The position numbers and the translations under genes are program-made. From Gemmatimonadota bacterium (GTDB taxonomy: Bacteria > Gemmatimonadota > Gemmatimonadetes > Longimicrobiales > Gaopeijiaceae), in the NCBI GenBank assembly GCA_026706635.1, contig JAPOYJ010000084.1, positions 1-64,000 on the forward strand: a stretch of 64,000 bases of DNA, in the 5' to 3' direction. This document shows positions 51,323-55,588 of this stretch, piece after piece (position 1 is the stretch's first letter; the number at the start of each line of letters is the position of its first letter). The notes under the pieces are model-generated. The model saw nothing but the letters and a program-made list of their open reading frames with translations, was not told the DNA's origin and did not search any database.

Positions 51323-51962
51323 CTACATCCCCACCCGGGCCAGGAGCTCCTTGTCGGTGTCGCAGTCGATGATCGCATCGGCGATCTCGGCGAGCCGGTC
51401 CGGGTCGGCAATGTCCCTGAGGACGCGGGAGAGCCGCTCAGCGGTCGCCGCTCCGAACTTCCTCGTCGCCAGACGCCCCACCAGCGCCCTGCCCTCCGCC
51501 CGCCCGCGTTCAAGCCCCTGCTCCAGTCCCTGTTCAAGTCCGCGCTCAAGTCCCTGTTCAAGCCCCTGCTAGATGCCATCGCGGTGAACCTGGTCCCGGA
51601 TCTCACTGACTCTCTCCCACATCGTCTCTGCCTCCAACGTCGTCAGAATCCTCGCCACCTCCTCCTCGGGAATCTGCCATGCCACCGCCGCGCCCGCCAC
51701 CCAGGTGCGCAACGCCGCGCGGAGCTCCGCGAACTCCTCCCCAGCGAACCGGGCCGCCAGGCCCCGCGTGACCCGCCCGAGGCTCTCGGGCGAGGGATCC
51801 CGCTCCACCCTTCCCAGCGAAGTCACCAGGTCCATTGAGGCCCGATTCCGCTCGCCGACCCTCTGCAGATCAAGCAGTAGATGCTGCGCCTGCGGCTGAT
51901 AGAGCGACAGCGCCTCGGGCACCGGGGCAATGAGCTCGGAGATGTCCGTTGCTGCCCGCCAG
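51323..51962 (-). pseudogene. Rpn-type nuclease/transposase gene, copy A (5' truncated)
   Basis: This 640-bp stretch matches the 3' part of copies B and C, including the in-frame amber codon (51569-51571) and the tail after it, which ends at a TAG at 51323-51325. The match stops abruptly at 51962, where the shared GCCCGCCAG runs into unrelated AGCAGGAGGC. The N-terminal catalytic half (D, ExQ) is missing, so it is a fragment. It also shares a little sequence left of the stop with copy B. Confidence 0.85.
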
Positions 51963-51998
51963 AGCAGGAGGCTGAGGACGCGACCGACGACGGCTACG

Positions 51999-52445
51999 TC
52001 AGGATTCGTCGCTCTGCGTTCGACGATCTGCTAGCCCGCGTTCGAGCTCTGCGACACGACGTCGAAGCTCACGGTTCCGAGATTCAAGCTGCTTTAGCCG
52101 ACGAACGCGATCGTCACCCTGCGCTTCGTAATCCTGAATGACGGTTAGCCAGTGAGCCGGATGGTTTCTATCGTCCAACAGACGCCGAAGCATGTGGTCG
52201 TCCTGGAGTGTCGAGGGATACGCGACCTTATCGCCCACGACCCTAACCTCGAAGCCTTCCAGGGTCACGACGATCGGGCGATGCCCTCCGGTCTTCAGCG
52301 CGTCAGCTTCCTGCATGGTCGCACCCTCGCACTGGAACGGCCCCGAGTAGCTCCAGGGCTGATTCTCGAACTCTGAGAGTATGACGATTGCGTAAATGGC
52401 CTGACAAGCACTGGCTGACACTGGAACCTCCATCGTCGTCAGCAT
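51999..52445 (-). CDS. Unknown protein with C-terminal coiled coil (island cargo)
   Basis: A 148-residue protein from the ATG at 52445, directly after the UDG-like gene. The N-terminal half looks globular (QAIYAIVILSEFENQPWSY, RPIVVTLEGFEVRVVGDKV). The C-terminal 45 residues are a charged coiled coil (RLKQLESRNRELRRRVAELE). I do not recognise a family. GC content and codon use are lower than in the neighbours, as expected for acquired DNA. Its close spacing to the UDG-like gene suggests a two-gene unit. Confidence 0.6.
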   Translation of the reverse strand: MLTTMEVPVSASACQAIYAIVILSEFENQPWSYSGPFQCEGATMQEADALKTGGHRPIVVTLEGFEVRVVGDKVAYPSTLQDDHMLRRLLDDRNHPAHWLTVIQDYEAQGDDRVRRLKQLESRNRELRRRVAELERGLADRRTQSDES

Positions 52446-52446
52446 C

Positions 52447-53088
52447 TCAAAGATACGGCGCGATCCCTCTACGCATCTGTCGCTCCACCTCTTCGTCGCT
52501 TCGGTACGCAGAGTAATGCCAAATGCGGCGAATCGGACCCGGAACATCCACACCGGCGTTTCTCTGAAGCCACTTCACCATCCAATGCGCGTTGCCGCCG
52601 ATACAAAAAACCGTAGCCGGCCGCACCGCGTCAAACTCCGTCTGGAGGATCTCGCTCCAAAGACGAGCCGCCCGCAGCTTCTCGTGCCAAGGAGTATCGC
52701 CCCACTCGCCAACGATAGCCGCCTGCTTGATCGCGTTCGTGATGTAGCAGCGCCAGCCGCCAGGCTCCCAGATCGCACCGTCCTTCAACCCGAGGTCGCA
52801 CAGCACCTTGCGGAAGCGCGTGTCCCGGCGGTTGGAGGGATTACCCGTCCACTGGGTATCAAAGTCGGGCGGGCCGTCCCAGGGGCTTTCTCTGATCGCC
52901 CGGAGCGCCGAAAGGGACGGATTCTCGCAGACGAACATCACGTCGGCACCGGGGTCGCCGAGCGCTCCGTAAAGCCAGGGGTACTTTTCGATCTGCTCTT
53001 TCCAACATGGAGGCCGAAGGGTTCGGAGTCTGTCGTGAATCGCCTCGCTCAGCTTAAGGAAGTGTCGGTGCGGCACCTTACTCACCAT
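52447..53088 (-). CDS. Uracil-DNA-glycosylase-superfamily-like protein
   Basis: A 213-residue protein starting at the ATG at 53088 (MVSKVPHRHF). It resembles the UDG fold: a first-strand motif PGADVMFVCENPSLSALR, a middle RCYITNAIKQAA, and a C-terminal RPATVFCIGGNAHWMVKW with RIWHYSAYRSDEE at the place of the family's HPS motif. Catalytic residues differ from classical UDG, so uracil removal is not assured. Neighbours are Rpn-type repeats and the coiled-coil gene, and base composition is lower, suggesting an acquired module. Confidence in the superfamily is moderate. Confidence 0.55.
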   Translation of the reverse strand: MVSKVPHRHFLKLSEAIHDRLRTLRPPCWKEQIEKYPWLYGALGDPGADVMFVCENPSLSALRAIRESPWDGPPDFDTQWTGNPSNRRDTRFRKVLCDLGLKDGAIWEPGGWRCYITNAIKQAAIVGEWGDTPWHEKLRAARLWSEILQTEFDAVRPATVFCIGGNAHWMVKWLQRNAGVDVPGPIRRIWHYSAYRSDEEVERQMRRGIAPYL

Positions 53089-53189
53089 CGTCGATTCCGG
53101 GGGGGACCCACATTCCTGGGATTCTCCTCCCCGCGCCTCTGTGGCCGCCACCTGTCTAGTGCGTCTTCGTAGGCGTTGCCCCGGGCCCC

Positions 53190-53435
53190 CTACATCCCCA
53201 CCCGGGCCAGGAGCTCCTTGTCGGTGTCGCAGTCGATGATCGCATCGGCGATCTCGGCGAGCCGGTCCGGGTCGGCAATGTCCCTGAGGACGCGGGAGAG
53301 CCGCTCAGCGGTCGCCGCTCCGAACTTCCTCGTCGCCAGACGCCCCACCAGCGCCCTGCCCTCCGCCCGCCCGCGTTCAAGCCCCTGCTCCAGTCCCTGT
53401 TCAAGTCCGCGCTCAAGTCCCTGTTCAAGCCCCTG
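53190..53435 (-). other. Post-amber C-terminal tail of Rpn copy B
   Basis: After the amber codon at 53436-53438 the frame stays open for 81 codons to a second TAG at 53190. It encodes QGLEQGLERGLEQGLEQGLE then RGRAEGRALVGRLATRKFG and a helical end ...CDTDKELLARVGM, the usual C-terminal extension of Rpn/YhgA-like proteins. Confidence 0.75.
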
Positions 53436-54209
53436 CTAGATGCCATCGCGGTGAACCTGGTCCCGGATCTCACTGACTCTCTCCCACATCGTCTCTGCCT
53501 CCAACGTCGTCAGAATCCTCGCCACCTCCTCCTCGGGAATCTGCCATGCCACCGCCGCGCCCGCCACCCAGGTGCGCAACGCCGCGCGGAGCTCCGCGAA
53601 CTCCTCCCCAGCGAACCGGGCCGCCAGGCCCCGCGTGACCCGCCCGAGGCTCTCGGGCGAGGGATCCCGCTCCACCCTTCCCAGCGAAGTCACCAGGTCC
53701 ATTGAGGCCCGATTCCGCTCGCCGACCCTCTGCAGATCAAGCAGTAGATGCTGCGCCTGCGGCTGATAGAGCGACAGCGCCTCGGGCACCGGGGCAATGA
53801 GCTCGGAGATGTCCGTTGCTGCCCGCCAGCGGGGCCGCCCGCTGTAGACCGTGACGGGCAGGACTGGCGGCAGCCTGTCGCCCGCCCTGACCTCCCCCCG
53901 GCGGACCAGTTCCTCGTAGGTCAGGCAGGTGTAGGTCAGAATCCGGAGGGCCATGAAGTAGTCGCTCTCCGACTGGAATTCGAGGAGAATGAGCAGGTAG
54001 AGCCACCCGTCCCGAAAGCCAATCTTCCAGAGCAGGTCCATCCGGCGCTGATCCAGACCACCGCTGACACGCTCGGTCGGAAGGGCCTCGAGCGTCTCGA
54101 AGTCGAGTTCGTCGGCGAGATCCCCGCCCACGAAGTTGCGGACCAGCTCCTCGACGGCGGCGCGCTGGGAGAAGACAAGCTTGTAGCTCTCGTCGTGCTT
54201 GCGGGCCAA
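53436..54209 (-). CDS. Rpn/YhgA-like PD-(D/E)XK nuclease, copy B
   Basis: A 257-residue protein (to the amber codon). It starts MARKHDESYKLVFSQ and has the family core RRMDLLWKIGFRDGWLYLLI followed by LLEFQSESDYFMALRILTYT, with the Asp and E-x-Q of the PD-(D/E)XK active site. Later come LPPVLPVTVYSGRPRW and DLVTSLGR. Rpn proteins (transposase-31 group) are DNA endonucleases that promote RecA-independent recombination. Reading through the amber would give 339 residues, the more usual full length. Its amino-acid sequence equals copy C. Confidence 0.85.
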   Translation of the reverse strand: MARKHDESYKLVFSQRAAVEELVRNFVGGDLADELDFETLEALPTERVSGGLDQRRMDLLWKIGFRDGWLYLLILLEFQSESDYFMALRILTYTCLTYEELVRRGEVRAGDRLPPVLPVTVYSGRPRWRAATDISELIAPVPEALSLYQPQAQHLLLDLQRVGERNRASMDLVTSLGRVERDPSPESLGRVTRGLAARFAGEEFAELRAALRTWVAGAAVAWQIPEEEVARILTTLEAETMWERVSEIRDQVHRDGI

Positions 54210-54335
54210 CCGGACTCCGGCGGAGGGGTTCGTGCGATGGTCGAGGCGGTGGGCGGGCGGACCCGGTGCCTGTGGTCAGAGCATCGGGCCGCCGGCCGGG
54301 CGCATACATGGCAAAACGGGCCAGTTGCGCGCGGA

Positions 54336-54353
54336 TGTAAATCACAGTTGACA
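54336..54353. repeat. Single 18-bp palindromic unit between Rpn copies
   Basis: TGTAAATCACAGTTGACA fits the TGTAA-N8-TKACA unit found in pairs elsewhere. It starts 2 bp after the end of unit B. No clear second unit follows, so this may be a decayed pair. Confidence 0.5.
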
Positions 54354-54395
54354 GCGCCGTAGCGTTGTCACCGCCAAGCGGTCCCCGGTTGCCCC

Positions 54396-54641
54396 CTACA
54401 TCCCCACCCGGGCCACGAGCTCCTTTTCGCTGTCGCAGTCGATGATCGCGTCGGCGATCTCGGCGAGCCTTTCTGGATCGGCAACGTCCTTGAGGACGCG
54501 GGAGAGCCGCTCAGCGGTCGCCGCTCCGAACTTCCTCGTCGCCAGACGCCCCACCAGCGCCCTGCCCTCCGCCCGCCCGCGTTCAAGCCCCTGCTCCAGT
54601 CCCTGTTCAAGTCCGCGCTCAAGTCCCTGTTCAAGCCCCTG
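54396..54641 (-). other. Post-amber C-terminal tail of Rpn copy C
   Basis: The same open 81-codon tail after the amber at 54642-54644, ending at TAG 54396. Compared with copies A and B it carries six conservative replacements (R/K, I/V, D/E, T/S, D/E, L/V) and four silent changes, with no frameshift or stop. Confidence 0.75.
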
Positions 54642-55415
54642 CTAGATGCCATCGCGGTGAACCTGGTCCCGGATCTCACTGACTCTCTCCCACATCGTCT
54701 CTGCCTCCAACGTCGTCAGAATCCTCGCCACCTCCTCCTCGGGAATCTGCCATGCCACCGCCGCGCCCGCCACCCAGGTGCGCAACGCCGCGCGGAGCTC
54801 CGCGAACTCCTCCCCAGCGAACCGGGCCGCCAGGCCCCGCGTGACCCGCCCGAGGCTCTCGGGCGAGGGATCCCGCTCCACCCTTCCCAGCGAAGTCACC
54901 AGGTCCATTGAGGCCCGATTCCGCTCGCCGACCCTCTGCAGATCAAGCAGTAGATGCTGCGCCTGCGGCTGATAGAGCGACAGCGCCTCGGGCACCGGGG
55001 CAATGAGCTCGGAGATGTCCGTTGCTGCCCGCCAGCGGGGCCGCCCGCTGTAGACCGTGACGGGCAGGACTGGCGGCAGCCTGTCGCCCGCCCTGACCTC
55101 CCCCCGGCGGACCAGTTCCTCGTAGGTCAGGCAGGTGTAGGTCAGAATCCGGAGGGCCATGAAGTAGTCGCTCTCCGACTGGAATTCGAGGAGAATGAGC
55201 AGGTAGAGCCACCCGTCCCGAAAGCCAATCTTCCAGAGCAGGTCCATCCGGCGCTGATCCAGACCACCGCTGACACGCTCGGTCGGAAGGGCCTCGAGCG
55301 TCTCGAAGTCGAGTTCGTCGGCGAGATCCCCGCCCACGAAGTTGCGGACCAGCTCCTCGACGGCGGCGCGCTGGGAGAAGACAAGCTTGTAGCTCTCGTC
55401 GTGCTTGCGGGCCAA
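54642..55415 (-). CDS. Rpn/YhgA-like PD-(D/E)XK nuclease, copy C
   Basis: A 257-residue protein with the same predicted sequence as copy B: opening MARKHDESYKLVF, active-site region with RRMDLLWKIG and LLEFQSESD, and ending RDQVHRDGI at an amber codon. The upstream 125 bp are also shared with copy B, so both genes have the same promoter region. Recent duplication or gene conversion is the simplest explanation. Confidence 0.85.
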   Translation of the reverse strand: MARKHDESYKLVFSQRAAVEELVRNFVGGDLADELDFETLEALPTERVSGGLDQRRMDLLWKIGFRDGWLYLLILLEFQSESDYFMALRILTYTCLTYEELVRRGEVRAGDRLPPVLPVTVYSGRPRWRAATDISELIAPVPEALSLYQPQAQHLLLDLQRVGERNRASMDLVTSLGRVERDPSPESLGRVTRGLAARFAGEEFAELRAALRTWVAGAAVAWQIPEEEVARILTTLEAETMWERVSEIRDQVHRDGI

Positions 55416-55588
55416 CCGGACTCCGGCGGAGGGGTTCGTGCGATGGTCGAGGCGGTGGGCGGGCGGACCCGGTGCCTGTGGTCAGAGCATCGGGCCGCCG
55501 GCCGGGCGCATACATGGCAAAACGGGCCAGTTGCGCGCGGGCAGGAGATCGGCCCTCTGACTGCGGATCCGCCAGCGCCTGTACCGAC

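What the first reader, a model, noticed from the sequence alone, without database searches (positions are those of the whole stretch)
51323..55415. Three Rpn copies share the same in-frame amber codon, followed by an open tail
In all three copies the codon after DGI is TAG, where the repeated QGLE pattern predicts a Gln (CAG). The frame then continues for 81 codons to a second TAG. In copy C the tail differs from copies A and B by 10 substitutions: 4 silent and 6 conservative (R/K, I/V, D/E twice, T/S, L/V). That pattern suggests the tail has been translated. Either the amber is read through to give two protein forms, or a truncated version spread recently by conversion.
Basis: partly seen in the sequence, partly recalled or inferred. 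Interest (0 to 1): 0.75.

Follow-up and report, generated by a model that had tools for sequence, protein, structure and literature searches.

The report
Nonsense-mutated toxin genes copied by conversion
Three neighbouring copies of a known bacterial toxin gene (rpn) share one stop mutation because they were copied from one another; the conservative-looking tail differences lie outside the copied stretch, so nothing requires the stop to be read through, and the finding is mostly ordinary gene decay.

Summary
All three rpn copies have TAG at codon 258, then 81 open codons to a second TAG. C differs from A/B by 10 tail substitutions: 4 silent, 6 conservative.

The inference from them is weak. 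Copies B and C are identical over 1,050 bp that include the amber. All 10 differences sit in the last 95 nt, outside that tract. They were made under protein constraint, but nothing shows that this happened after the amber. They fit an older paralogue divergence that conversion left uncovered. Two intact copies in a closed sister genome show the same mosaic.

No close homologue examined has a stop there: CAG in most, CGG or GAG in the rest. RF1 is present, no CUA tRNA was found, and TAG is a common terminator. The tail is the Rpn antitoxin-type domain (PMC10327210). A conserved candidate internal start lies upstream of the amber, at codon 241, so the amber should truncate both toxin and antitoxin.

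Verdict: a recent CAG-to-TAG nonsense mutation in an rpn toxin-antitoxin gene, spread by duplication or conversion. Readthrough is not excluded, but nothing requires it.

The parts
54396..55415 (-). rpn copy C, full frame with in-frame TAG at codon 258 (TTG start 55415)
53190..54209 (-). rpn copy B, full frame with in-frame TAG at codon 258
51323..51962 (-). rpn copy A, fragment without the first 126 or so codons, same TAG
54642..54644 (-). amber codon of C
53436..53438 (-). amber codon of B
51569..51571 (-). amber codon of A
54491..55540 (-). tract of C identical to B (1,050 bp), amber included
53285..54334 (-). tract of B identical to C (1,050 bp), amber included
54396..54490 (-). unconverted distal tail of C, holding all 10 differences from B
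53190..53284 (-). distal tail of B (A has the same)
54693..54708 (-). candidate internal antitoxin start of C: GGAGG (54704-54708), 8 nt, ATG codon 241 (54693-54695)
53487..53502 (-). candidate internal antitoxin start of B
51620..51635 (-). candidate internal antitoxin start of A

Best explanation
The copies are members of the Rpn (YhgA-like, PF04754) family, which in E. coli are gene-within-gene toxin-antitoxin systems that act against phage. A single C-to-T change turned the glutamine codon at the hinge between the nuclease body and the repeat/antitoxin tail (CAG) into TAG in one copy. Tandem duplication and gene conversion then copied that version over its neighbours, leaving only the last 95 nt of one copy unconverted. 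Translation most likely stops at codon 257. The long product loses the repeat helix and C-terminal domain, and the product of the internal start at codon 241 would be a 17-residue stub, so one mutation disables both partners. The tail looks well kept because the mutation is recent. Shown: the sequence facts, the mosaic, the private amber, RF1 and the tRNA set. Inferred: the order of events, internal initiation, and loss of function.
For: 1,050 bp identical between B and C including the amber, all differences distal. No stop at this site in the close homologues: CAG x7, CGG x3, GAG x1, and none in three further tail-bearing homologues. The same mosaic in sister genome G021: two copies about 1.07 Mb apart with 771 of 771 body bases identical but different upstream DNA, repeat number and 3' end. 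Other rpn copies in the genus are broken at scattered other positions. RF1 over its cut-off. 45 tRNA genes, none with anticodon CUA. TAG ends 13 of 30 other probable genes of the window and is the usual terminator of the homologues. Tail omega on the lineage is 0.08-0.12, equal to background, as expected if inactivation is too recent to show.
Against: The tail shows no decay at all, which readthrough would also predict. The age of the amber relative to the B/C distal divergence cannot be fixed with the data held. The body of B and C is intact, so the 257-residue form could still be doing something.
Confidence: 0.8

Rival explanations
1. Leaky or programmed readthrough: a fraction of ribosomes insert an amino acid at the TAG, giving a 257-residue and a 339-residue form, and also a full antitoxin from the internal start.
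For: The tail is open and protein-like, with omega 0.08-0.21. All three copies keep the stop, and UAG differs from glutamine codon CAG by one base, so near-cognate misreading by tRNA-Gln(CUG), which is present, is conceivable.
Against: The stop is private to this genome. All tail differences lie outside the tract that carries the amber, so constraint after the amber is not shown. RF1 present, no CUA tRNA, TAG a common terminator; the tail itself ends in TAG.
Confidence: 0.08
2. Functional split: the amber separates a working 257-residue nuclease from a tail domain that is translated on its own from a downstream start, such as GTG codon 288, much as rpnS exists as a separate gene in some E. coli strains.
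For: Stand-alone rpnS genes are known (PMC10327210). GTG288 has GGAGG about 11 nt upstream (visible).
Against: The conserved candidate start is at codon 241, upstream of the amber. GTG288 is GTA in two homologues, has no SD at normal spacing, and its product would lack the repeats that set partner specificity.
Confidence: 0.07
3. Assembly or base-calling error shared by collapsed or duplicated repeats.
For: The copies are identical over long tracts, which are hard to assemble, and the genome is a draft of 86 contigs.
Against: A, B and C have different flanks and C has its own 3' end, so at least three sites were resolved, and the body shows no other damage.
Confidence: 0.05

Closest known systems
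E. coli RpnA and the Rpn (COG5464, PF04754) toxin-antitoxin family (PMC10327210)
   Same: N-terminal nuclease domain (profile match to E. coli RpnA, E 1e-17 in a one-sequence search); four-residue repeats of variable number; ribosome-binding site plus ATG inside the gene just before the repeats; tandem arrays made by duplication.
   Different: Here an amber stop follows the internal start, so both products should be truncated; the C-terminal domain is not detectably similar in sequence to that of E. coli RpnA.
Stand-alone rpnS genes (ypaA/rpnE-S, DUF4351)
   Same: Tail domain encoded apart from the nuclease reading frame.
   Different: No convincing start of its own was found for the tail here; it is the same frame behind a stop.
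Nonsense pseudogenes in multicopy families homogenised by gene conversion
   Same: A shared lesion inside a perfectly identical tract with diverged edges.
   Different: Nothing essential.

Membership tests
Rpn family (PF04754) | Transposase_31 nuclease domain | tested here: met
   79-80 bits against a cut-off of 21
Rpn family (PF04754) | PD-(D/E)XK-type acidic residues kept (D58, E77-x-Q79) | tested here: met
   E77, F78, Q79 invariant and D58 nearly so in 21 sequences, present in B and C; absent from fragment A. Which residues are catalytic is from general knowledge of the superfamily.
Rpn RpnL/RpnS gene-within-gene | Four-residue repeats of variable number starting 8-20 residues after the internal Met | tested here: met
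   repeats begin 17-18 residues after Met241; their number varies between copies
Rpn RpnL/RpnS gene-within-gene | Internal ribosome-binding site and ATG | tested here: met
   25 of 26 sequences have at least 5 nt of SD at normal spacing versus 9 of 136 other internal ATGs; by sequence only, the rows are related and the residues are conserved as protein too
Rpn RpnL/RpnS gene-within-gene | C-terminal domain of the RpnS/DUF4351 kind | tested here: inconclusive
   DUF4351 matched by 15 of 22 members, best E 1e-4, below the curated cut-off for the window copy; long helix plus three helices predicted; no match to the RpnA-S structure listed
Rpn RpnL/RpnS gene-within-gene | RpnS blocks RpnL | not testable with these tools
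   needs expression
Programmed or reassigned amber readthrough | Stop conserved at the site in relatives | tested here: not met
   sense codon in all close homologues examined
Programmed or reassigned amber readthrough | Suppressor tRNA(CUA), loss of RF1, or avoidance of UAG as terminator | tested here: not met
   the genome is 96% complete, so a missed tRNA is possible
Programmed or reassigned amber readthrough | Selection on the tail after the stop arose | tested here: inconclusive
   selection on the tail is real but cannot be dated after the amber

The most novel reading that the evidence does not exclude
A leaky amber placed exactly at the hinge of a gene-within-gene toxin-antitoxin system sets the ratio of tail-less nuclease to full-length toxin and antitoxin, and spread through the array because it was useful.
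Probability: 0.06. Interest if true: 0.7.

Novelty: new member of a known kind. Interest (0 to 1): 0.3.

Why it matters
It is a warning about reading selection from multicopy genes: protein-like differences between copies can predate a lesion that conversion spread afterwards. It also extends the sequence hallmark of the Rpn internal antitoxin start to Gemmatimonadota, and shows in a closed genome that conversion can homogenise the nuclease body while repeat number and 3' end stay different, which bears on how toxin and antitoxin specificity diversifies.

Tried and rejected
UAG reassignment: rejected (RF1, tRNA set, stop usage). A recurrent stop at the hinge in the genus: not seen among the listed matches; the other in-frame stops that could be placed are elsewhere. 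Searches for near-identical DNA or relatives in viral contigs found nothing. A solved structure for the tail: sequence and fold searches gave no convincing match, RpnA-S (7TH0) not listed; the models were of middling confidence, so this is inconclusive. The count of silent versus replacement changes alone is not unusual (P about 0.3-0.4); only their conservativeness is. A first alignment mixed strands and was discarded in favour.

Full report
What is there. Three rpn copies lie head to tail on the minus strand: C (54396-55415), B (53190-54209) and a fragment A (51323-51962) that lacks the first 126 or so codons. All have TAG at codon 258 after DGI, 81 sense codons, and a second TAG. The body is a Transposase_31/Rpn nuclease (PF04754, 79-80 bits).

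Where the differences are. A base-by-base comparison of B and C gives zero differences over 1,050 bp (53285-54334 and 54491-55540), which include the amber, the repeats, the first part of the tail, the body and upstream DNA. All ten fall in the last 95 nt of the frame. Random placement would do this with probability about 1e-11. B and C are therefore a mosaic: a recently homogenised block carrying the amber next to an older, diverged edge (about 10%). The distal segments of B and C are each other's nearest relatives, at about half the distance to other homologues.

What the differences mean. Random mutations give as few replacement changes as seen, without a stop, in 28-42% of trials, but changes as conservative as these in only about 0.03%. 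A codon model gives omega 0.21 on the B and C tips, not different from background (P 0.58), with neutrality rejected at P 0.043. So the tail was translated during most of that divergence. Because the amber lies in the recently copied block, the divergence may well be older than the amber. If the amber were older than the divergence, continued translation would have to be supposed; if younger, nothing new is needed.

Is the amber ancestral or functional? At this site the closest homologues have CAG (7), CGG (3) or GAG (1); further tail-bearing homologues also lack a stop. The amber is private to this genome. The genome has RF1 (467.6 bits, cut-off 423.25) and 45 tRNA genes, none with a CUA anticodon. 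TAG ends 13 of 30 other probable genes in the window and is the usual terminator of the homologues. The tail's omega on this lineage is 0.12 (C) or 0.08 (B), against 0.10 background, and the body's 0.20 against 0.16: no sign of decay, so inactivation, if it is that, is recent.

Conversion is a habit of the family. In the closed chromosome of sister genome G021 (OX639991.1), two intact copies about 1.07 Mb apart are identical over all 771 body bases compared, yet differ upstream, in repeat number and at the 3' end. Other rpn copies in the genus carry stops or frameshifts at scattered places.

What the tail is. In E. coli, rpn genes encode a toxic nuclease and, from an internal start, its C-terminal domain as an antitoxin; [quoted passage not shown] The present family has the same layout. 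An ATG at codon 241, 17 codons before the amber, is preceded by GGAGG at 8 nt in the close relatives and by AAGGAGG at 5 nt in the more distant group: 25 of 26 sequences, against 9 of 136 other internal ATGs. The rows are related and the residues are also conserved as protein, so this is good but not conclusive evidence. E. coli rpnA has AAGGAG, 6 nt, ATG at its proven internal start (with PMC10327210). The tail is predicted as a long helix followed by three helices and matches DUF4351 weakly. Since the amber lies after the internal start, it should truncate toxin and antitoxin together.

Conclusion. The best account is a recent CAG-to-TAG nonsense mutation in one rpn copy, spread by tandem duplication or gene conversion. 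Readthrough or a functional split remains possible at low probability; the data cannot date the amber directly. The organism is a Gemmatimonadota bacterium by its relatives, probably of the sponge-associated genus Candidatus Palauibacter (own knowledge, not tested).

Noticed in passing
L009 and L031 (G021:C1:1643415-1644431 and 568970-569950): Two intact rpn copies about 1.07 Mb apart with identical nuclease body but different upstream DNA, repeat number (12-base units) and 3' end: conversion confined to the body.
   Followed up: yes
window 55510-55540 and homologous places about 100-135 nt upstream of the TTG start in other loci: A conserved edge, roughly CCCATTNCACCATGTATGCGCCCC, in unrelated loci across the genus, with unrelated DNA beyond it: a promoter or the end of a mobile cassette.
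   Followed up: no
window 51999-53151, minus strand: A uracil-DNA-glycosylase-superfamily reading frame (52447-53151) and an overlapping frame without Pfam match (51999-52553) lie between copies A and B, next to A's truncation point.
   Followed up: partly
L072:1358-1454 (contig C30 of the same genome): ARAGORN calls a tRNA-SeC (anticodon tca); it concerns UGA, not UAG, and was not checked further.
   Followed up: no
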